Positions 1-9,268 of a stretch of DNA of 9,390 bases are shown one piece after another; the stretch's first letter is position 1; every line of letters begins with the position of its first letter. Source of the stretch: Caldisericota bacterium (GTDB lineage: Bacteria; Caldisericota; JANLFM01). The notes below the pieces were generated by a model. It did no database searches. It saw nothing but the letters and a program-made list of their open reading frames with translations, and was not told the DNA's origin. The stretch lies in assembly GCA_024655865.1 (NCBI GenBank), contig JANLFM010000037.1:1-9390 (forward strand), read 5' to 3'. A program made the translations under genes and the position numbers.

Positions 1-845
1 TTCCAGCCTGCAAAAATTGTCCCCTAAACCAGAATTGCCCTTATGCGGTCGTATTTGAGTCCTCTCCTCCTGCTAATTCCACAATTATGAGGGACTTTTC
101 CGATACCCCTCGTCCCTTTGTTATTGAACCAGAAAACGATTCCAGGACCGAATATCTGCCCGGGGAAACCTTCTTTTTAGACCTGATCATCTTTGGCAAA
201 GCCCTTGACCTTTTCCCCTATTTTTTGCTTGCCTTCCGGGAATTGGCTTCTCAGGGAATCGGGAAAATGAGGGGGAGGGCGTCCCTTGAGAAGCTGGAAT
301 TTCAAGGGGGTGAAGGTAGGCAGTTAGTTTATCAAGTCGAGGATAACCTTATTCGCACTGGATGGCAGCCAGAAACCGGAAAGTCCCTAAAGAAGATTTT
401 CCAGGAGTTAATTTTCTCGGAAAATGATCACATTACTCTTTGCTTTCAAACTATGACGCGTTTGATCAACAAGGGCCATTTAGTGGAAATTCCGCATTTC
501 CACATTGTCTTTCGTAACTTGGTGAGGAGGGTTTCCGCTCTCCTGTACTTTTATCACGGAATGCGAATGGACCTGGATTATGGTTCCTTGTTCAGTGAGG
601 CGGAAAAAGTGAAATTGGTTAAAAACGAAACTGTTTGGGTGGATTGGGCTCGTTACTCCAAGCGCCAGCAGGAAAAAATGTTTATGGGCGGGCTCCTCGG
701 AAGGGCAACATACTTATTTGACGGAGTAAACCCCAGTGTTTTCCTACCCTTCGTCATATTAGGCGAAATCACTCATGTGGGCAAAGGCGCAGTTTTCGGT
801 TTAGGTAAGTATCGGGTTGAAACTTTGCGGTTCTGCCTCCGATGA
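1..845 (+). CDS. cas6: Cas6 CRISPR pre-crRNA endoribonuclease (5' end outside window)
   Basis: RAMP-fold endoribonuclease that cuts CRISPR precursor RNA within the repeats to give mature crRNAs for the I-D complex. The frame is open from the left edge (first full codon at 3), giving 280 visible residues before TGA 843-845, so the gene starts upstream of the window. An ATG at 87 is possible but too late: the codons before it encode the family's N-terminal cysteine cluster, CKNCPLNQNCPYAVVFE (Cys codons at 9, 18 and 36). The C-terminal half has the Cas6 pattern DWARYSKRQQ, then MGGLLG, and ends in the glycine-rich loop HVGKGAVFGLGKYRV (774-818) typical of the PF10040-type Cas6 C-terminal domain. 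The His of HVGKG is a possible functional residue, but the catalytic residue cannot be assigned from sequence alone. A 171-base gap separates it from cas3'; having cas6 first in the locus is less usual for I-D. The family is secure; only the true start is unknown. Confidence 0.92.
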   Translation, partial: PACKNCPLNQNCPYAVVFESSPPANSTIMRDFSDTPRPFVIEPENDSRTEYLPGETFFLDLIIFGKALDLFPYFLLAFRELASQGIGKMRGRASLEKLEFQGGEGRQLVYQVEDNLIRTGWQPETGKSLKKIFQELIFSENDHITLCFQTMTRLINKGHLVEIPHFHIVFRNLVRRVSALLYFYHGMRMDLDYGSLFSEAEKVKLVKNETVWVDWARYSKRQQEKMFMGGLLGRATYLFDGVNPSVFLPFVILGEITHVGKGAVFGLGKYRVETLRFCLR

Positions 846-1016: not shown

Positions 1017-2855
1017 ATGACAAATTACTTATTGGAAACTTACCGAAAGACGGGAATCGAAAAGGTTTACTCTCACCAGAAAGAAGTTTGGGAAGCTTTA
1101 GAAAAGGGAAAAAATATTATTCTTGCAACCGGGACGGGCTCTGGTAAGACCGAAGCCGTTCTTCTTCCTTCTCTAGCAAAAAATCTTCGGATAATCCTTA
1201 TATACCCCACCAAAGCGCTTCTACAGGATCAGGTGCCCAGAACTGAGAAGTTGTGGAAGGAGATTAAAGGAAAAAATGAAACCGGGCATGTCTCAATAGA
1301 TACTGGCGATGAGACCGATGAGACTCTTTTTCGAGCCGATGTAATTTTGACAACTATAGATAAGTTCCTATTCCGCCTCTTTGGCTACGGGAGCACCCGT
1401 TGGGGATATATCTATCCATGGCGCATCGCTCAAAGTCCTCAGAAGAAGACACTCTTGATTTTTGATGAAGCCCATACCTACGACAAGGTTTCTCTTATTC
1501 ATTTCCTTTTCTTGATCGATAAACTGACCTACGAGAAAAGCGTGCAAACTGCCATACTCTCCGCTACTTTGCCTCGGGCTTTAGTTGACCATCTTCGGGA
1601 TGACCGTGGCGAGAGTTTCCCTAGAGCTAGTGGTGAGGGGGAATTCTTTCAGCTCATTAGTGAAAAAGCTGGTGAGGTCAAGCGAGGGCAGGTCCGGTAC
1701 GGTGGGCATCTCGGAAATCCCAATGAAGTTATTCAAAGAGCAACCGATGCCTACCAGCGAGGACAACAGGTGATTATCATCGTTAACAGGGTGTATCCTC
1801 CCAAAGTAGAGGAACCGACAAGCAGCGAGGAGGCGCAAGGATTTTCGGTCAAAGAGCTATGGGAAGCCCTGCAAGATAAGTTAGATGAACGAGCTCTAGA
1901 GAATTTGATCCTCTATCATGGCCATCAATCCCCAGGCCAGCGGCGGGAATTTCTGAAGAAGCTCCAGGAACGAGATGCATCCCGCGAAGATGCACCTAAG
2001 CCCTATATACTGGTGACTACATCGGCCTTCGAGGTAGGAGTGAATGTCTCTTGTGATTTAATGTTCACCGAGGTGTGCAGTCCTGATGCCTTTGTCCAGC
2101 GGATTGGACGCTGTGCCCGGCGATGGAAGAAAAGGGACGATGGTACCGAAGAGCCTGAGCAGGGGGAAGTTTATACCTTCGGAGATGTTTCTCCAAAAGT
2201 GTCACCTGGAGAGAAAGAAGCTCAGCACAGACTAATGCGTTTACTTCAACACTATAAAGGTAAAGCACTAGACGCTGATGTGAAAGTTCAGATCAATGCT
2301 CTAAACGTCTTTGATGCTACTTTGTTGGCCAGGCGTCGCAATACAATTATCTACACTGTGAATGCCAGCCTCTACGACTATGTGTATAACTTTGTGGCTA
2401 CTGGGGCCGAGATGTGGCGGAAGGGTGTTCTGGTCACACGGGATTGGGTGCCAACATTAGAAATCCAGCCAGATGGGGCAGATGCCCAAGAGCGGCTGCG
2501 GTTGTCTGCTACTTATACTGTCCCCCGGGAGTTGGTGAAAGGTTGGTGGTTCGAGGCAAGAGATGTAGACGGACGGCCCATCCCTATCCACGGCAAGGAT
2601 TTACTTGATCAGTTGCGGGCATGCGGGGTAACCACCCAACAGAAAGCGGTGAACGCTTATCAGGCAACCCTAGTTATCTGGCTAAAGCCCGAAGCCTGGG
2701 ATAATGTCTTCGGATTGAAGGAGCGAAAACGCTCAAAACGCTCGGATCCTGCGAAAGGTAACATACCATGCCCACCCGGGATGAGAGCAGTTTTCTTCGA
2801 ACCCTTGCCCGATGCTCCAGCGCTCTTCTGGTTCGAGCCCGAGGAGGAAGTGTAA
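1017..2855 (+). CDS. cas3: Cas3' superfamily 2 DNA helicase (no HD domain), type I-D
   Basis: ATP-dependent helicase that unwinds target DNA after it is recognised by the I-D crRNA complex; 612 residues. The helicase motifs appear in order: a Q-motif-like YSHQ (18-21), Walker A GTGSGKT (39-45), YPTKALLQDQ (Ia), TTIDKF (Ib), DEAH (150-153), SATLP (182-186), TTSAFEVGVNV (V) and QRIGRCAR (361-368). The first RecA-like domain spans about 20-190 and the second about 235-400; the remainder is a Cas3-type C-terminal region. No HD phosphohydrolase motif is present, as expected for I-D, where helicase and nuclease are separate chains. The start is ATG 1017, set by AAGGGAGGT seven bases upstream; an ATG at 1012 in another frame stops after two codons. 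The stop (2853-2855) is one base from the next start codon, so the HD gene is probably coupled to it. No key motif is missing. Confidence 0.95.
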   Translation: MTNYLLETYRKTGIEKVYSHQKEVWEALEKGKNIILATGTGSGKTEAVLLPSLAKNLRIILIYPTKALLQDQVPRTEKLWKEIKGKNETGHVSIDTGDETDETLFRADVILTTIDKFLFRLFGYGSTRWGYIYPWRIAQSPQKKTLLIFDEAHTYDKVSLIHFLFLIDKLTYEKSVQTAILSATLPRALVDHLRDDRGESFPRASGEGEFFQLISEKAGEVKRGQVRYGGHLGNPNEVIQRATDAYQRGQQVIIIVNRVYPPKVEEPTSSEEAQGFSVKELWEALQDKLDERALENLILYHGHQSPGQRREFLKKLQERDASREDAPKPYILVTTSAFEVGVNVSCDLMFTEVCSPDAFVQRIGRCARRWKKRDDGTEEPEQGEVYTFGDVSPKVSPGEKEAQHRLMRLLQHYKGKALDADVKVQINALNVFDATLLARRRNTIIYTVNASLYDYVYNFVATGAEMWRKGVLVTRDWVPTLEIQPDGADAQERLRLSATYTVPRELVKGWWFEARDVDGRPIPIHGKDLLDQLRACGVTTQQKAVNAYQATLVIWLKPEAWDNVFGLKERKRSKRSDPAKGNIPCPPGMRAVFFEPLPDAPALFWFEPEEEV

Positions 2856-2856
2856 G

Positions 2857-3750
2857 ATGAGTGAAAAAGAATTCCACGCCGCCAAGATTATTAGGTTCGG
2901 CAACGCTTTCTATCTTATGGAAGTGGACGACCATAATAGACACGTAGGTGAGATTGCAAAAACGCTTGGTGCTTCAGAGGCGGGGTGTGCGGCAGCTTTG
3001 TGTCATGATCTGGGCAAAATTGGCAATCTGGAGAGGGCTTTTGCCGGTCGCAAGCCACGGATAGCACGGGATTATTTACAGGCTTATGTGGATTGGATTG
3101 TAAAGCAAGCAGGGCTGGATAAACAGTTGAAAGGCTCCACAAGGCAACATTTCGTCCTGGCTTTGCTTTGCCGCACAAGGCAAGAGCGGTATATGGCAGT
3201 TAAAACCGCCCTTAGCGATATAAGCATACTAGATGATCGCTTACAGGAATTGATCGACCTTCCCGTATCGCCGTTCCCGCGCCATGCCGACGGTATCCCG
3301 GAAACGGTGCTGGGGCGTTCGGTGAAAAATGACTACCTTGCTCAGGCGGGGTGTCCGTATGAGTTGATTGATTACGCCTTTGAATTGATTCGCCTGCACC
3401 ATTCCTTCCGGGTAGACCGTATTGTAGAAGCTGCCAGCGCCCTGGAAGCCCGCTTGCCCAATGCCTCTGCTCAGCAATTTGTGCAGGACTTGCATACGCT
3501 CATCTCAGCCGACAATGTGGCCTCTGGTCTGTACGAGAAAGCGCTGTCGGCTACGAACGGGACATTTTCGTTTGGGAACCCGGCCCAGGAGTCGTTTCTA
3601 CTTCATGATTTGGAAGGTGCCGGTAAGGTAGAATGGCTCTCATCATCGGGCGAACTTCGCTGCTGCCGCATGCACCTTGAGTGGCAAGCATCTAGTTGTC
3701 CGAAAGAGCTCTACCTTGACGTGACTTTCCATGTAGTGGAGGTGGGATAA
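2857..3750 (+). CDS. Stand-alone HD nuclease, equivalent to the N-terminal domain of Cas10d (Cas3''-like)
   Basis: Predicted metal-dependent HD-family DNA nuclease of 297 residues that should cut DNA opened by Cas3'. Visible motifs are DHNRHVGEIAKTL (candidate metal-ligand histidines H26 and H29), LCHDLGKIG with the HD pair H50-D51, then H143 (PRHADG), H181/H182 (RLHHSF) and SADNVASGLYEKA with D219. The ADNxASG ending resembles the close of the HD domain in Cas10-family proteins, which points to an origin in Cas10d rather than ordinary Cas3''. In most I-D systems this domain is fused to the N-terminus of Cas10d/Csc3; here it is a separate gene whose TAA overlaps the ATG of the next gene (TAATG). 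The start ATG 2857 is chosen because GAGGAGG (2841-2847) lies nine bases upstream; an earlier in-frame ATG at 2812 lies inside cas3' and lacks this support. The family call is firm; the relation to Cas10d is inferred from position, motif and combined length. Confidence 0.87.
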   Translation: MSEKEFHAAKIIRFGNAFYLMEVDDHNRHVGEIAKTLGASEAGCAAALCHDLGKIGNLERAFAGRKPRIARDYLQAYVDWIVKQAGLDKQLKGSTRQHFVLALLCRTRQERYMAVKTALSDISILDDRLQELIDLPVSPFPRHADGIPETVLGRSVKNDYLAQAGCPYELIDYAFELIRLHHSFRVDRIVEAASALEARLPNASAQQFVQDLHTLISADNVASGLYEKALSATNGTFSFGNPAQESFLLHDLEGAGKVEWLSSSGELRCCRMHLEWQASSCPKELYLDVTFHVVEVG

Positions 3751-5750
3751 TGGAGTCCCTTTCAAAGGCCGTTCTTGCTCTGCTGAAATTTTCCGACCGT
3801 CCAGGAGAAGCAACAGCTCTGGCTCGCTCTTTGTTAAGACGCTCACTCACTGAAACCCAATACAGGGCCCTTTTGGTAGCCGTGGGGGCTTTTGCTAAGG
3901 ACAATGAATCATACTTCCTGCGCTATGACGATATCAAGGCAACCGCGGCTAATGAATTACTAAGCCAATTTGAGAGTTGGTTAGCCAGCGTGGAGGCGGG
4001 AGGCGATGCGCTTTATTGGCTTATCTTCCGCAAGCCCAACGAACCCCGTATGCGAGCAGCTTACGACGTCCTGGCGGGATGGGTGCTGAAATTTCTGTAT
4101 CAAACCAGAGGCGCTATTCCAGTGGATTACGCCGATGGTCAGGCAAAGATATGGTTGGCACAACCCTTGCCTTCTAAGGAAATATGGGACGAATTTATTA
4201 GATGGTTTTTGGAATCCCGTAGTGAGGTGCTCGAATCAAACATAGCAACACTTCTCAATTTCGCTCCTAAGAAACCTATAGGTGCTGTACCCGTGCCCGA
4301 TCACTTGTTTGAGCCAGTTAGTGATGCTCTTATGAAAGCGATTCAGAAAAATAGTAGATTATTGGGGAAGTTTCAGACTTCAGCAAAGGTCAAGTGGCAA
4401 CGGGCTCAAACGAATGAGGAGAGAAAAACAGCTATTTGCGAAGGCAAAAAGGCTACAAGCAGATCGCCATTTGAGGTTACAAACACACCCTCGCTGCATA
4501 CAGCTACTGCAGGACAAGGTACCCGAAGCTGCATTACATGCCTAACTGATAGCGGTATTGCTGAGCTGGGTACTCGATTGGTATTTCCAGAGTCCAAAAA
4601 GGTCTGGTACGACGAGCCTGGGCGCAATTTGCAGAATAGAGGAGTGAACCCGCCGGTGTGCCCAGAATGCTTCTTTGCTGCCATGATCAGCGGATTTTAC
4701 CCCTCAGAGGCCTACTCAGTGTGCGAGCTTCCTGTCGCTTCAGCGTACCAGACCTTTTTGTTGGCACAACGCCTATCCAATGTCACGGTATCCTTGGGTG
4801 CCATGGCTATTGCCCGTTCGTCTTTACTTACCGTAATACCTTCTAAGTATTTTCTAGTTCGGCTGACAACAGGCCGGGGTGCTTTGCCAAAGAAGACACA
4901 GCTCTATCTCCTTCTGGCGGATTACAGCCCTTCATTCCCTGGCGAAGGGAGTGGGATACAAGCCTATGTAGAGGCTGCTGGAGCGATCAATTATCTGAGC
5001 ATCCACTTGGACGTGCTACGGGTCCTAAACCTGTTCCGGCGGGGGGACGTGCTACCGCCTCATTTCGTTACAGAGGGCAATGCCAAAGCCCGAGCCAATG
5101 ATGCAGTACGTTTACTGGAAGCAGGCAAGCCCTATGCAGCCCTGTATCGACTGCTCTATGATGCCTTCCAAAATGCAAAAAAAGGGTGGTTCGGAGAACG
5201 GAGCCTTTTCAAATCACCAAATACCTTGGGAACCTTTGATAAAACGGTGCAGCAAGGCGCCAGGACCTTATTGAAATTTCTTCTGAGAGGAGGTGAAAGC
5301 GAGATGTTAATCAAAGACCCTGGGACGTTCTACCGGGATGTCAAGGACCTTTCCGATGCCCTTTACGACTTACTCCAGCCCATCGCTCAGTATGACGTGA
5401 ACCAAAGTGGCTCCAACGTTTCCGTGGTAGTCCGCAAATTCGTAGAGGCTGTTGAGAAACGCTTCCCCCAGCTTAATTTAGTCGAACTTCAGTACATGGT
5501 TGCCGAAGTTGGTGACAAGGCGGAGAAGCAACGGACGGAAGTTGAAACCGTCTATGTGAAGGGTAAGGAAAGACTGCAACAGGACCTGGATAAGATTGAA
5601 GGAAAGATCAACGAGATGTATGAAAAGTACTTCCAGAACGGAAGTGCCTACATCTGGCGAGAGTTTATCAAAGAGGTGAGCCAGCGTTTGCTGGCCAGAT
5701 TGTTGCTGGGTGTGAGGGCGTCAAAAGGGGGAGGGTCTGCCCAAGGTTAA
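3750..5750 (+). CDS. cas10d: Cas10d (Csc3) large subunit of the type I-D complex, lacking its HD domain
   Basis: Large subunit of the I-D effector, expected to sit at the crRNA 5' end and help recognise the PAM; 666 residues. Two CxxC pairs, CITC (C261, C264) and CPEC (C304, C307), make a likely zinc-binding knuckle as in Cas10-type proteins. No GGDD cyclase motif is present, consistent with the inactive palm of Cas10d; a GGDA at 84-87 is in the wrong place. Residues about 587-630 are highly charged and probably a long helix or coiled coil. No HD motif is present: that activity is in the preceding gene, and the two products total 963 residues, about the size of a fused Csc3. The start ATG 3750 overlaps the previous stop and has GGAGGTG at 3738-3744; this frame is closed by a TGA at 3717-3719, so there is no hidden fused ORF. 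The C-terminal 148 residues appear to be translated separately as well (see Cas11d). Identification rests on operon position, the CxxC pairs and length. Confidence 0.88.
   Translation: MESLSKAVLALLKFSDRPGEATALARSLLRRSLTETQYRALLVAVGAFAKDNESYFLRYDDIKATAANELLSQFESWLASVEAGGDALYWLIFRKPNEPRMRAAYDVLAGWVLKFLYQTRGAIPVDYADGQAKIWLAQPLPSKEIWDEFIRWFLESRSEVLESNIATLLNFAPKKPIGAVPVPDHLFEPVSDALMKAIQKNSRLLGKFQTSAKVKWQRAQTNEERKTAICEGKKATSRSPFEVTNTPSLHTATAGQGTRSCITCLTDSGIAELGTRLVFPESKKVWYDEPGRNLQNRGVNPPVCPECFFAAMISGFYPSEAYSVCELPVASAYQTFLLAQRLSNVTVSLGAMAIARSSLLTVIPSKYFLVRLTTGRGALPKKTQLYLLLADYSPSFPGEGSGIQAYVEAAGAINYLSIHLDVLRVLNLFRRGDVLPPHFVTEGNAKARANDAVRLLEAGKPYAALYRLLYDAFQNAKKGWFGERSLFKSPNTLGTFDKTVQQGARTLLKFLLRGGESEMLIKDPGTFYRDVKDLSDALYDLLQPIAQYDVNQSGSNVSVVVRKFVEAVEKRFPQLNLVELQYMVAEVGDKAEKQRTEVETVYVKGKERLQQDLDKIEGKINEMYEKYFQNGSAYIWREFIKEVSQRLLARLLLGVRASKGGGSAQG
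5286..5296 (+). promoter_or_regulatory. Internal Shine-Dalgarno inside cas10d for Cas11d
   Basis: AGAGGAGGTGA; its core AGGAGGTGA (5288-5296) is fully complementary to the 16S rRNA 3' end. It lies seven bases before an in-frame ATG at 5304. It is as strong as or stronger than the binding sites of the annotated genes around it, which is hard to explain for a site buried in a coding region unless it is used. It encodes LRGGESE in the Cas10d frame. Confidence 0.78.
5304..5750 (+). CDS. cas11d: Cas11d small subunit, internally translated from the cas10d gene
   Basis: A 148-residue protein in the same frame as Cas10d, starting at Met519 of the large subunit and sharing its stop. It begins MLIKDPGTFYRDVKDLSDAL and looks almost wholly helical, with a charged probable coiled-coil stretch (roughly GDKAEKQ to NEMYEKYF, residues 69-108) and an amphipathic C-terminal helix. 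Small subunits of type I complexes are short helical proteins that line the complex belly and bind the non-target strand. Independent translation of the small subunit from within the large-subunit gene is established for subtype I-D, and also for I-B and I-C. The support here is the perfect Shine-Dalgarno seven bases upstream, the in-frame ATG, the position at the gene's 3' end and the size. No other gene in the window could supply this subunit. Actual translation is inferred. Confidence 0.75.
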   Translation: MLIKDPGTFYRDVKDLSDALYDLLQPIAQYDVNQSGSNVSVVVRKFVEAVEKRFPQLNLVELQYMVAEVGDKAEKQRTEVETVYVKGKERLQQDLDKIEGKINEMYEKYFQNGSAYIWREFIKEVSQRLLARLLLGVRASKGGGSAQG

Positions 5751-5798: not shown

Positions 5799-6992
5799 AT
5801 GCCTGGAGAATATATTTTAGATTGTGGGCTGATTTCGCCAAACGCCAAGACCGTGATCGTCTCTGCTGTCCTGGAGACAGTAGGACAGGTGCGCTTTGGC
5901 GATGGCACGGAAGTTAACCTGACGATCACCGAGAAAGACCTCGTCCCTATACAAGGTGGGGGATTTGTGGAGAAGGTCGTCTTTTCCGGTTCCAAGCGGC
6001 GAGGAGTGGATCGGCGAACGATACACGCTCTGCGGAATCAGTTTTTGGCTCTTGATCCTCCCTGCTACATTCCTAAGCTGTGCGGCCAATGCCCTACCTG
6101 CTGGCTCTTCGGGCGCGCAGCTATGGGGGAGGGTTACAACATCAAGTCACGTGTCCTTTACGCCTCGGCTCTTTCAGTAGAACCGGCCGACATCGCCGTT
6201 GCCGTTCACAATCGCAATGCTCCCAACGAGTTAGACCACACCACAGGCGAAGCCGGTATTCACAGCGAGGAACTGATCAAGGCCAATGTTCACTTCCCTA
6301 CGATTACCGTTCTCGACAGGGTAGTGGATTGGGAAATCGGGGCTTTCGCCCATGCCCTGCTCGAGAACGTCAATGGCAATCGTTATACTGCTGCTTCTGC
6401 TCGGCAAGGGGGAGTTCGTTTCAGCGAGGGCGAAAATGGCAAACTTATTGTGGTAGATGTATCTGAGCGAGGAATCTTTCCTCTAGAAACGGTCAAAGTA
6501 CCCGGCGAGGAGACCGACTTCGAAAAGGTTTTGCAAATGTTTGCTGATGCCCCCGATCTTCAGAAGATCAAAGAATTCTTTGAGCGGCAGGGATTTACTT
6601 GCGAATATGACCAGACAAACAATTTATATACCGTTAAGAAGGACGATGGGGAGCTATGGACTATTAAAAGGGAAGGTTCTAAAATAACGGTCACACAAGG
6701 CAAGGACGAGAATTTTAGGGCCCTTATGACCCGCTACATTGGTGACCAAGCCCTCGGTTTTCTAAGGGAGAAACAAGAAGACTTCAAACTTTTCTTGGAA
6801 GGGTACACCGTTGATGCCTGGAACCAAACTCTTTCCGCGATCAAGGGTAAATTACTCCTGAACGAAAGCACTGGAGAAGCCCAAGGTGCCAGAAGGAGTA
6901 GAGGCCGCGGCAGACGCAGGGCTGCAAATGAAGAAGAAAGGACGGAGGAACAATTACCTTCAGAGTCGGAAGAAGAAAGTGGATCCTCATGA
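5799..6992 (+). CDS. csc2: Csc2, the Cas7-type backbone subunit of the type I-D complex
   Basis: RAMP-fold protein that polymerises along the crRNA spacer to form the backbone of the I-D complex; 397 residues. The N-terminal region is followed by a cysteine cluster, C89 then CGQCPTC (C95, C98, C101) in LCGQCPTCWLFGRAAMG, a Csc2 hallmark and likely zinc site. Next come conserved-looking stretches such as NAPNELDHTTGEAGIHSEEL and the NRYTAASARQGGVRF segment. Two parts look unusual. Residues about 240-304 form a separate charged, beta-rich segment that may be an inserted subdomain. Residues about 358-397 form a low-complexity tail: first arginine-rich (RRSRGRGRRR, 365-374), then rich in Glu and Ser. 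The start ATG 5799 follows AGAAAGGAG at a seven-base spacing. The stop overlaps the csc1 start (ATGA). The product is longer than I would expect for Csc2 (about 350 residues), consistent with those additions. Confidence 0.92.
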   Translation: MPGEYILDCGLISPNAKTVIVSAVLETVGQVRFGDGTEVNLTITEKDLVPIQGGGFVEKVVFSGSKRRGVDRRTIHALRNQFLALDPPCYIPKLCGQCPTCWLFGRAAMGEGYNIKSRVLYASALSVEPADIAVAVHNRNAPNELDHTTGEAGIHSEELIKANVHFPTITVLDRVVDWEIGAFAHALLENVNGNRYTAASARQGGVRFSEGENGKLIVVDVSERGIFPLETVKVPGEETDFEKVLQMFADAPDLQKIKEFFERQGFTCEYDQTNNLYTVKKDDGELWTIKREGSKITVTQGKDENFRALMTRYIGDQALGFLREKQEDFKLFLEGYTVDAWNQTLSAIKGKLLLNESTGEAQGARRSRGRGRRRAANEEERTEEQLPSESEEESGSS

Positions 6993-7750
6993 ACCGTTAT
7001 TTTTGCCTGGAGTTTCACCTACAGCCGCTCTCAGAGTTGCTGATCCGACAGGTAGGCAAGTCCAACGTACAGTGGTTTTCATACCCCTTCTTGCCGCCAA
7101 CCACCTTCAGTGGTTTTATTGCCAGCTTGCTTGCGGATGAAGGGACCGAGACATGGCGAAAAAATTACATAGAACTCAACGATCAGGAAACCAGGGAAGT
7201 GAATACACTTTTTCCAGGAGTATTTTCCGTAGGAGCTTACCCTGATCCGATGCTTGTCCGGCGAAATCGACACTATCGGCAACATCTGGGCGATGTATAC
7301 AATTACGAGGAGTTTGCCTGGGCAGGCAACAAGAAGTTGGCGGTCGCCGAAGCCTTTTGGACATCTGGGCTAAAAGGATTTTTGTTAGCTGCGACAATTG
7401 AACCTTTAAAACAAATCGCGCAAAATCCACTTCTGTCTTTCAGAGTAGCCCGAGTTGGAAAAAAGGGGGTAACAAAAGTACAATCGGTAATCGATCCTCA
7501 AGAATTACAGCTTCAGGAAATTGAAAAACTTGTACCGTCAACCGTTGCCCCATTAGAAATGGTTTGTGCTCTTCGAAGTGACCTGGAGGTATTCCACGTT
7601 CCAATTCGGAAAAAGCACAAAAAGCCTCTTGTCCGCGAGGTTTATCCCTGTGTGTTTGGTGAACCCGTTCGCGGAAAGGCGTATACAAATATTTCCAGAA
7701 CAATAATTATTCCTGAGCCGTTAGTGCATAATGTTATGCCTTGTACATAG
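6989..7750 (+). CDS. csc1: Csc1, the Cas5-type subunit of the type I-D complex
   Basis: RAMP-fold Cas5-family protein that should hold the crRNA 5' handle and join Cas10d to the Csc2 backbone; 253 residues, near the usual size. The N-terminal beta strand (RYFCLEFHLQPLSELLI) is followed by the Cas5/Csc1 signature LPPTTFSGFIASLLA starting at L35, where Cas5 proteins carry the first helix of the RAMP domain. The rest is a mixed sequence ending in strands such as YTNISRTIIIPEP. The ATG overlaps the csc2 stop by four bases (ATGA) and has only a weak Shine-Dalgarno, so translation probably depends on coupling to csc2. It is the last gene of the interference operon; a 255-base gap follows. Together with Csc2, this gene fixes the subtype as I-D. 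Confidence 0.9.
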   Translation: MNRYFCLEFHLQPLSELLIRQVGKSNVQWFSYPFLPPTTFSGFIASLLADEGTETWRKNYIELNDQETREVNTLFPGVFSVGAYPDPMLVRRNRHYRQHLGDVYNYEEFAWAGNKKLAVAEAFWTSGLKGFLLAATIEPLKQIAQNPLLSFRVARVGKKGVTKVQSVIDPQELQLQEIEKLVPSTVAPLEMVCALRSDLEVFHVPIRKKHKKPLVREVYPCVFGEPVRGKAYTNISRTIIIPEPLVHNVMPCT

Positions 7751-8005: not shown

Positions 8006-9013
8006 TTGATCCTCATTGCTGACCGCTTTGGACAATTTATAGGTAGGACTTCCGAGAGGGTCGTAATCCGGGAGAAAGGAAAAACTGTGCAAGAAATTCC
8101 GTTCTTCCAGGTTGAACAAATTCTGGTGGTAGGAGCAGGTATTTCCCTGTCGAGCGACCTCGTTCGCGATTGTGCCGAAAGAGGGATAACCATCACTTTC
8201 CTTTCCAGCTCAGGAACTCCTCTGGCAAGGCTCTCCTCTCCTCAGATGGTGGGAACAGTACAAACGAGAAGGGAACAACTACTGGCAATATACGACCAAA
8301 GAGGTTTAGATCTAGCCAAGTACCTGATTGAGGGAAAAATCAAAAATCAGATTTCCACATTAAAATATTTCGCTCGCCACCGGAAGGAAGCAAATAGAGA
8401 AATGTTTGAGTTAATGATGCAGGGGACGGAGGAAATGGGAAAACTGTTAGCTGAGCTCGACAGTATAATCGATGGCACGGTTGAGACAAACCGGGAACTC
8501 CTCCTGTCTATAGAAGGAAGAGTAGCCTCCTGCTATTGGGACCTGGTTGCCAGGATTTTGCCTGCAGAATTAAATTTTTCGGGAAGAGAAAGAAGGGGAG
8601 CTTCGGACCCGGTAAATTCCTCTCTTAATTACTGCTATGGGATCCTCTATAGCCAAATCTGGAATGCGTTAATACTGGCAGGTCTCGATCCGTTCGCCGG
8701 TTTTTTGCACACCGATCGGCCCGGCAAGCCCTCCCTGGTTTTAGATTTTATAGAGGAATTTCGCTCTTTCGTGGTAGACCGTCCCCTGATCGCATTTTTT
8801 GGAAAGGGAAGCAAGGTAAAGATGGAGGAAGACAAAATAGCGGAGGCCTCACGACGAGAACTCGCCCAGAGGATCTTTGAGCGCTTGGAGGAATCCCACA
8901 CCTACGAAGGAAAAAAGCATAAACTTAGGGTGATTATTCAACTTCAAGCAAGAAAGCTGGCAGTTTTTCTGAGGAAGGAGGGCCCATATCGACCATTCGT
9001 AGGGACTTGGTAG
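8006..9013 (+). CDS. cas1: Cas1 CRISPR integrase
   Basis: Metal-dependent integrase that, with Cas2, inserts new spacers at the leader end of the CRISPR array; 335 residues, a normal full length. The N-terminal beta domain opens MILIADRFGQFIGR and carries IPFFQVEQILVVGAG. The helical catalytic domain holds the three conserved residues: E170 (LLSIEGRVASCYW), H235 (GFLHTDRPGKPSLVLD) and D247 in LVLDFIEEFR. All appear intact. The start is TTG 8006: the codon immediately before it in frame is TGA (8003-8005), so nothing further upstream is possible, and GGAAAGGA (7991-7998) is suitably placed. The stop TAG is directly followed by the cas2 ATG, showing coupling. It heads the adaptation module, apart from the interference genes, and may have its own promoter. 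Confidence 0.97.
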   Translation: MILIADRFGQFIGRTSERVVIREKGKTVQEIPFFQVEQILVVGAGISLSSDLVRDCAERGITITFLSSSGTPLARLSSPQMVGTVQTRREQLLAIYDQRGLDLAKYLIEGKIKNQISTLKYFARHRKEANREMFELMMQGTEEMGKLLAELDSIIDGTVETNRELLLSIEGRVASCYWDLVARILPAELNFSGRERRGASDPVNSSLNYCYGILYSQIWNALILAGLDPFAGFLHTDRPGKPSLVLDFIEEFRSFVVDRPLIAFFGKGSKVKMEEDKIAEASRRELAQRIFERLEESHTYEGKKHKLRVIIQLQARKLAVFLRKEGPYRPFVGTW

Positions 9014-9268
9014 ATGTTTACATTAGTAATTTATGACATCTCAGACGACAAGCTGCGAAACAAGTTAGCCTCCATTTGCAAGGATTATGGTCTGGAACAT
9101 ATTCAATTTTCCGCTTTTTGCGGACCGCTGTCCTGGAATAAACGAGAGGAACTATTTCTCCGTCTAAAGAAGGCTGCCGGGAAAAAAGAGGCGAACATCC
9201 ACCTATATGTTATTTGCGATCGCGACCTTAAACTGGCCAAGAAACACGTCTATCTCCAGGAGGGATAA
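9014..9268 (+). CDS. cas2: Cas2 CRISPR adaptation protein
   Basis: Small ferredoxin-fold protein (84 residues) that forms the dimeric core of the Cas1-Cas2 integration complex. It opens with the Cas2 pattern MFTLVIYDISDDKLRNKLA, a first beta strand ending in the conserved acidic position (D8), followed by the helix and by HIQFSAFCGPLSW, as in the second strand region of the family. IHLYVICDRDL forms a later strand. Length is normal for the family. The ATG abuts the cas1 stop (TAGATG) and lacks a good Shine-Dalgarno, so translation is probably coupled to cas1. Only two bases separate its TAA from the cas4 start. Confidence 0.95.
   Translation: MFTLVIYDISDDKLRNKLASICKDYGLEHIQFSAFCGPLSWNKREELFLRLKKAAGKKEANIHLYVICDRDLKLAKKHVYLQEG

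What the first reader, a model, noticed from the sequence alone, without database searches (positions are those of the whole stretch)
5286..5750. Hidden cas11d gene: perfect internal Shine-Dalgarno and in-frame ATG inside cas10d
AGGAGGTGA (5288-5296) matches the 16S anti-Shine-Dalgarno over nine bases and precedes an in-frame ATG (5304) by seven bases, giving a 148-residue helical C-terminal protein. No separate small-subunit gene is present, and internal translation of Cas11d is established for other I-D systems. Standard annotation would miss this gene. The site shows the mechanism is kept in a system whose large subunit has already lost its HD domain to another gene.
Basis: partly seen in the sequence, partly recalled or inferred. 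Interest (0 to 1): 0.75.

Follow-up and report, generated by a model that had tools for sequence, protein, structure and literature searches.

The report
Hidden small-subunit start inside CRISPR gene
A CRISPR gene in this microbe very probably makes two proteins, the full-length large subunit and, from a strong internal start signal kept in distant relatives, its last 148 residues as a separate small subunit; the trick is known in other CRISPR systems, but here it sits in a rare, hardly described variant.

Summary
AGGAGGTGA lies at 5288-5296, the in-frame ATG at 5304, and the remaining 148 residues are predicted helical. It is the strongest ribosome-binding signal in the operon. Fused large-subunit genes from six other genomes (two Bacillota MAGs, a third genome from the sampled Bacillota phylum, an Archaeoglobi archaeon, two Rubrobacter-type) have a GGAG-type site and a start codon (ATG, GTG or TTG) at the same alignment column, the only column out of 909 shared by all seven genes. 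Synonymous-shuffle tests are modest alone but significant combined (about 6e-4). A second R. radiotolerans strain has one extra A just before the site, so there the small subunit is a separate annotated ORF. No other small-subunit gene was seen. I conclude it is an internally translated Cas11 (about 0.88), not yet shown by experiment. The mechanism is established for types I-B, I-C and I-D: a new variant, not a new kind. Two corrections: the large subunit resembles Cas10d by predicted fold only (sequence models call it Cas8b or nothing); and the HD nuclease is a separate gene, but whether it was "lost" from the large subunit is untested. This rare I-D-like lineage with a free-standing HD is the more interesting part.

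The parts
5288..5296 (+). internal Shine-Dalgarno AGGAGGTGA
   Evidence: only copy in window, strongest SD of the operon, GGAG-type site at the same alignment column in 7 of 7 large-subunit genes
5304..5306 (+). internal start codon ATG (Met519 of the large subunit)
   Evidence: ATG/ATG/ATG/ATG/TTG/GTG/ATG in the seven genes
5304..5750 (+). proposed cas11 small-subunit gene, 148 aa, in frame with and nested in the large-subunit gene
   Evidence: stand-alone ORF homologue in R. radiotolerans RSPS-4
3750..5750 (+). large subunit, 666 aa, Cas10d-like by predicted fold, no HD domain, C-terminal Cas11 domain
4530..4670 (+). CxxC...CxxC zinc-finger segment of the large subunit (C261, C264, C304, C307)
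   Evidence: invariant in seven sequences
2857..3750 (+). stand-alone HD nuclease (Cas3''-like), start ATG 2857 preferred over 2812
   Evidence: H, HD, HH and D residues invariant in six loci; SD before 2857 but not 2812
1017..2855 (+). cas3' helicase, I-D type
   Evidence: TIGR03158 above its cutoff, PADLOC Cas3d 3e-127
5799..6992 (+). cas7/csc2
   Evidence: TIGR03157 above its cutoff
6989..7750 (+). cas5 (PADLOC Cas5b)
87..845 (+). cas6 (frame open to the window's start; true start uncertain)
8006..9013 (+). cas1 (TTG start as listed)
9014..9268 (+). cas2

Best explanation
The gene 3750-5750 makes two proteins from one reading frame: the full-length large subunit from ATG 3750, and, by independent ribosome initiation at ATG 5304 guided by AGGAGGTGA, the C-terminal 148 residues as a free small subunit (Cas11). 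The full-length protein would sit at the crRNA 5' end of the Cascade with its own C-terminal Cas11 domain, and extra free Cas11 copies would extend the belly filament and steady the R-loop, as in type I-D Cascade. The very strong internal site would allow more Cas11 than large subunit. Shown here: the sequence signal, its conservation, its unusual strength, the domain boundary, and the absence of another small-subunit gene. Inferred: actual initiation, incorporation into the complex, stoichiometry and function.
For: Seven of seven homologous fused genes have an SD (duplex energy -8 or better) plus start codon within one codon of the same alignment column; no other column outside that cluster exceeds 3 of 7. 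The start-codon property is kept while the amino acid changes (Met, Leu by TTG, Val by GTG). Anchored on the window site, the product of per-gene background rates for L008, L026 and L009 is about 2e-6; this ignores amino-acid homology and is only a guide. In six of seven it is the best SD among all in-frame start codons. Combined synonymous-shuffle P for five lineages, SD plus start codon, is 6e-4. Codons just after the start (519-540) are identical in the three closest genes at 13 of 15 comparable sites against 48% gene-wide. In R. radiotolerans RSPS-4 a 1-nt A-run difference puts the segment in its own ORF beginning at the site. No separate small-subunit ORF lies in the operons L006, L008, L024 and L026. 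In the whole-protein model the C-terminal part aligns with C-terminal regions of Cas10d, Cas8c, Csm1 and Cmr2.
Against: No expression data. GGAG alone is easily produced by the Gly-Gly residues: synonymous shuffles keep GGAG plus a start codon in 9-62% of cases, 59% for the window, so the synonymous signal is moderate; for L008 (P 0.16) and L024 (P 0.42) it is not significant alone. The site is not unusually unpaired in predicted mRNA folds in most genes. The isolated 148-aa model has no significant Foldseek hit, and its best structural Z scores, including 6.1 to Cas10d, are within the range common for helical bundles. Window, L006 and L007 are close relatives and count as one lineage; L009 and L024 are also related (62%).
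Confidence: 0.88

Rival explanations
1. The SD-like run is a by-product of coding Arg-Gly-Gly-Glu in a linker; only the full-length large subunit is made and its C-terminal domain is the sole Cas11 unit.
For: Gly-Gly is nearly invariant there and by itself often yields GGAG under synonymous shuffling; L008 and L024 are not significant on their own.
Against: Start codons ATG, GTG and TTG at the right distance in 7 of 7 despite residue changes; the only column with 7 of 7; window energy far beyond shuffles, P 0.006; elevated codon conservation just downstream.
Confidence: 0.08
2. The internal SD is a programmed ribosome pause that helps fold the preceding domains before the C-terminal helices, not a start site.
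For: It lies at a domain boundary with lower model confidence; SD-like runs pausing ribosomes is general knowledge, not tested here.
Against: A pause site needs no start codon, yet one is always present at initiation spacing; related systems are shown to initiate there (PMC10212523, PMC11899642).
Confidence: 0.02
3. A free small subunit arises by proteolysis of the large subunit or by frameshifting at the boundary.
For: Fragmentation was once proposed for Cas8b (cited in PMC11899642); R. radiotolerans RSPS-4 has an A6 run at the boundary.
Against: The other R. radiotolerans-type genome has A5 and an open fused frame; no homopolymer at the boundary in window, L006 or L007.
Confidence: 0.02

Closest known systems
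Type I-D Cascade, Cas11d from cas10d (Synechocystis pSYSA; McBride et al. 2020 as cited in PMC9123187 and PMC10212523)
   Same: Csc2-type Cas7, separate Cas3' helicase, large subunit whose 3' end encodes a helical small subunit; 146 codons follow from ATG 830 in Synechocystis against 148 here; the large-subunit model's four best PDB hits are I-D large-subunit entries.
   Different: The large subunit is 617-819 aa instead of 971-1158 aa and lacks the HD domain; no detectable sequence similarity to Cas10d even profile to profile; HD is a separate gene; Cas5 matches Cas5b profiles, not Csc1.
Type I-B Cas8b/Cas11b (Haloferax volcanii Met545, PMC11899642; other I-B systems)
   Same: Small subunit from an internal in-frame start in the large-subunit gene with an SD-like element; PADLOC places this large subunit with a Cas8b profile.
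   Different: H. volcanii has a weak GGATG; here a full AGGAGGTGA. Helicase and Cas7 are I-D type.
Type I-C Cas8c/Cas11c (cited in PMC9123187, PMC10212523)
   Same: Internal translation of Cas11 from the large-subunit gene; C-terminal segment aligns with a I-C Cascade large-subunit chain, residues 494-608 (Z 5.6, 108 residues, rmsd 4.6).
   Different: Other subunits and the rest of the large subunit differ.
Rubrobacter radiotolerans RSPS-4 plasmid CRISPR locus (NZ_CP007515.1)
   Same: Same effector gene order helicase-HD-large subunit-small subunit-cas7-cas5; homologous proteins.
   Different: One extra A separates the small subunit into its own annotated ORF (WP_156947981.1); a CARF gene is added.

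Membership tests
Internally translated Cas11 (as in I-B, I-C, I-D) | in-frame start with ribosome-binding site in the 3' part of the large-subunit gene | tested here: met
Internally translated Cas11 (as in I-B, I-C, I-D) | site conserved among relatives | tested here: met
   7 of 7 fused genes at one alignment column; synonymous-level support moderate
Internally translated Cas11 (as in I-B, I-C, I-D) | no separate cas11 gene in the operon | tested here: met
   window and loci L006, L008, L024, L026; RSPS-4 frameshift is the exception
Internally translated Cas11 (as in I-B, I-C, I-D) | helical product with Cas11 fold | tested here: inconclusive
   five-helix model; within the whole model it aligns with C-terminal regions of Cas10d, Cas8c, Csm1 and Cmr2, but the isolated model has no significant hit
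Internally translated Cas11 (as in I-B, I-C, I-D) | short protein made in cells and present in Cascade | not testable with these tools
   needs proteomics or mutagenesis
CRISPR-Cas subtype I-D | Cas7/Csc2 | tested here: met
   TIGR03157 54.2 bits, cutoff 38
CRISPR-Cas subtype I-D | separate Cas3' helicase of I-D type | tested here: met
   TIGR03158 73.6 bits, cutoff 69.1
CRISPR-Cas subtype I-D | Cas10d by sequence family | tested here: not met
   no NCBIfam or Pfam hit; hhalign to eight canonical Cas10d sequences E 0.07
CRISPR-Cas subtype I-D | Cas10d-like large-subunit fold | tested here: met
   Foldseek best hit 6thh_C E 2.2e-5, probability 1.00; next 7sba_I, 7sbb_I, 6yes_B; VIA Z 8.0, rmsd 5.6, 243 residues
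CRISPR-Cas subtype I-D | HD nuclease fused to the N-terminus of Cas10d | tested here: not met
   no conserved His in the large subunit; separate HD gene in all loci checked
CRISPR-Cas subtype I-D | Cas5/Csc1 | tested here: not met
   no Csc1 family hit; PADLOC Cas5b 1.3e-26
CRISPR-Cas subtype I-B | Cas8b large subunit | tested here: inconclusive
   PADLOC PDLC01203 'Cas8b' 3.6e-30, but that 688-position profile may derive from this very lineage: the RSPS-4 protein is 688 aa
CRISPR-Cas subtype I-B | Cas3 with fused HD and helicase | tested here: not met
   helicase and HD are separate genes

The most novel reading that the evidence does not exclude
This rare lineage, scattered over bacteria and archaea, is an undescribed I-D-like subtype in which the HD nuclease stands alone beside the helicase gene, i.e. 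the intermediate predicted by published scenarios for how the HD domain moved between the large subunit and Cas3, with internal translation of Cas11 already present in it.
Probability: 0.25. Interest if true: 0.62.

Novelty: new variant of a known kind. Interest (0 to 1): 0.42.

Why it matters
It extends internal Cas11 translation to a divergent large-subunit family that sequence models either do not recognise or label Cas8b, and it marks where the small subunit begins, which matters for reconstituting or repurposing the complex, where Cas11 may have to be supplied as its own gene (PMC10212523). The variation of the start codon between ATG, GTG and TTG with the site kept is a clean, testable sign of selection on initiation rather than on the residue. 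The same loci carry a free-standing HD nuclease, an arrangement that published scenarios predict as an ancestor or intermediate (PMC3150331, PMC10212523), so they could help decide which way that domain moved.

Tried and rejected
Viral contigs: no relatives with the single protein or with a two-sequence alignment. Searches by large-subunit sequence in the window's own phylum (54 genomes) found no other clear member (one borderline match, E 9.5e-4, was not followed). Broad genome searches, about 1,180 genome look-ups, found few members, so the lineage is rare in what is held. I first took the R. radiotolerans small ORF as evidence for an ancestral two-gene arrangement; the second genome shows it is a one-base difference in an A run, so it is either a strain mutation or a sequencing error and is not used as evidence for direction. 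Sequence searches of the PDB with the large- and small-subunit profiles found nothing relevant. Profile comparison of the HD gene with the N-terminus of canonical Cas10d was not significant, so 'moved from Cas10d' could not be supported. mRNA accessibility around the site is not distinctive. In the fold searches of the isolated 148-aa model, known stand-alone Cas11 proteins did not appear among listed rows; this is not evidence against the fold. No 16S was found in the window's assembly, so its own anti-SD could not be read. No CRISPR-array-like repeats were found in the window; one family member (L026) has them.

Full report
The observation. The window holds a CRISPR-cas operon: cas6, cas3' helicase, a separate HD gene, a 666-aa large subunit, cas7, cas5, cas1, cas2. 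Inside the large-subunit gene the sequence CTGAGAGGAGGTGAAAGCGAGATG puts AGGAGGTGA at 5288-5296 and an in-frame ATG at 5304; 148 residues follow. This is the only AGGAGGTGA on either strand, and its predicted pairing with a standard anti-SD (-21.6 kcal/mol) beats every annotated gene start tested in the window and all 43 in-frame start codons of the gene. Shuffling synonymous codons gives as strong a site in 0.6% of cases.

Relatives. By sequence the large subunit has no NCBIfam or Pfam match, and the only PADLOC match is a profile named Cas8b. A tblastn search of plasmids found one relative, in Rubrobacter radiotolerans RSPS-4; using cas7 of both loci, a scan of genome contigs found four more loci (two Bacillota MAGs, the Archaeoglobi archaeon JdFR-42, a Rubrobacteraceae MAG), and genome searches added G068, whose large subunit matches that of R. 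radiotolerans apart from the split, and G766, from the phylum of one of the Bacillota genomes. Identity of the large subunits to the window's ranges from 71% to 27%.

Conservation of the site. The codon-level sites are AGAGGAGGTGAAAGCGAG-ATG (window), AGAGGAGGCGAAAGCAAG-ATG (L006), AGAGGAGGTGAAAGTGAG-ATG (L007), ACCGGAGGTATTGCG-ATG (L008), AAAGGAGGTAAATCCAAA-TTG (L026), CAGAAAGGAGCGAGT-GTG (L009) and CAAAAAGGAGCA-ATG-ATG (L024). All lie at one place in the protein alignment. In a scan of all 909 columns, allowing one column of slack, this is the only one where seven of seven have a start codon with an SD; apart from its immediate neighbours no column exceeds three. In six of seven genes it is the best of all in-frame candidates. 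The residue at the start varies (Met, Leu, Val) but always by a codon that can start translation.

How strong is this statistically? Taken one by one the synonymous shuffles give P = 0.006 (window), 0.038 (L006), 0.003 (L007), 0.16 (L008), 0.014 (L026), 0.031 (L009) and 0.42 (L024), counting the start codon where it could vary. Treating window, L006 and L007 as one lineage, Fisher's combination gives 6e-4, or 3e-3 for the SD alone. The mere presence of GGAG is weakly informative because Gly-Gly tends to produce it; conversely the Gly-Gly may itself be kept for the SD, which cannot be decided here. The anchored-column estimate (about 2e-6) ignores amino-acid homology. In addition, in the three closest genes codons 519-540, just after the start, are identical at 13 of 15 comparable positions against 48% gene-wide, and the single most conserved run of ten comparable codons in the gene (530-539) lies there, as expected of a start region, although this stretch was noticed after the fact.

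A natural split. In RSPS-4 the segment is annotated as a separate 149-aa ORF (WP_156947981.1) overlapping the large subunit in another frame. It aligns with window residues 519-666 (27% over 140 residues, E 4e-11 for this one comparison). The other genome, G068, has one A fewer and an open fused frame of 819 codons. So the split is a one-base strain difference or an error in a homopolymer, but it shows that the internal start suffices for gene callers to see the small subunit as a gene.

What the large subunit is. AlphaFold with seven sequences gives a model of middling confidence (pLDDT 76.6, pTM 0.75). Its four best Foldseek hits in the PDB are all type I-D large-subunit entries: 6thh (E 2.2e-5), 7sba, 7sbb and 6yes, and VIA-align puts the same entries first (Z 8.0 to 6.5). 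Yet profile-profile comparison with canonical Cas10d is not significant (E 0.07). Cas7 and Cas3' pass NCBI's I-D cutoffs; Cas5 does not match Csc1 and matches Cas5b. The large subunit has no conserved histidine but keeps a CxxC-CxxC finger, while the separate gene before it keeps the H, HD, HH and D residues of an HD nuclease in six loci. I therefore call it an I-D-like variant with a free-standing HD.

Comparison with the known. Internal translation of Cas11 from the large-subunit gene is established for I-D, I-B and I-C (PMC10212523; PMC9123187, which estimates about 23% of systems; PMC11899642 for archaeal I-B). In canonical I-D genes the segments are of the same size: 146 codons from ATG 830 in Synechocystis, and SD-preceded start codons at 148 to 163 codons from the end in several others. 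The mechanism here is thus known in kind; its setting is new to me. I found no paper describing this variant among those searched, but the PADLOC profile of the same length as the RSPS-4 protein suggests classifiers have already met it under the name Cas8b.

How it works, and what remains inferred. The full-length protein would recognise the PAM and anchor the complex, with extra Cas11 copies along the crRNA-DNA hybrid; the strong SD would raise the Cas11 to large-subunit ratio. The signal, its conservation and the lack of another small-subunit gene are shown; initiation, assembly and function are inferred from related systems. Makarova et al. 2011 (PMC3150331) considered a stand-alone HD ancestor for I-D, and the 2023 review (PMC10212523) proposes transfer of HD from I-D to Cas3; this lineage fits either as a relative of the intermediate, but no rooted tree was made and the HD gene shows no significant similarity to the Cas10d N-terminus.

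Noticed in passing
window 2857-3750: Stand-alone HD nuclease gene between cas3' and the large subunit, conserved in all loci checked; its real start is probably 2857, not 2812.
   Followed up: partly
L005 7351-7362 (NZ_CP007515.1): R. radiotolerans RSPS-4 has A6 where the other genome (L024) has A5, splitting large and small subunit ORFs.
   Followed up: yes
L026, about 20 kb-scale locus, 20-mers from position 3353 on: Direct repeats at 71-75 nt spacing (contain TCAGTCTCCTACCTTACGGAG), a likely CRISPR array beside this variant's operon.
   Followed up: no
L005 9716-10945; similarly placed ORF in L009 8530-9882: A CARF-family gene (TIGR02710) lies between cas5 and cas6 in the R. radiotolerans locus, unusual for a type I system; the ORF in L009 was not checked against family models.
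   Followed up: no
L006 2360-3436; L026 reverse strand: WYL/HTH-like regulator genes precede the helicase in related operons, as in Synechocystis I-D; named from reading the sequence only.
   Followed up: no
L007 604-2892, L009 4365-6821: Large subunits vary in a poorly conserved insert between the N-terminal part and the zinc finger (617-819 aa overall).
   Followed up: no
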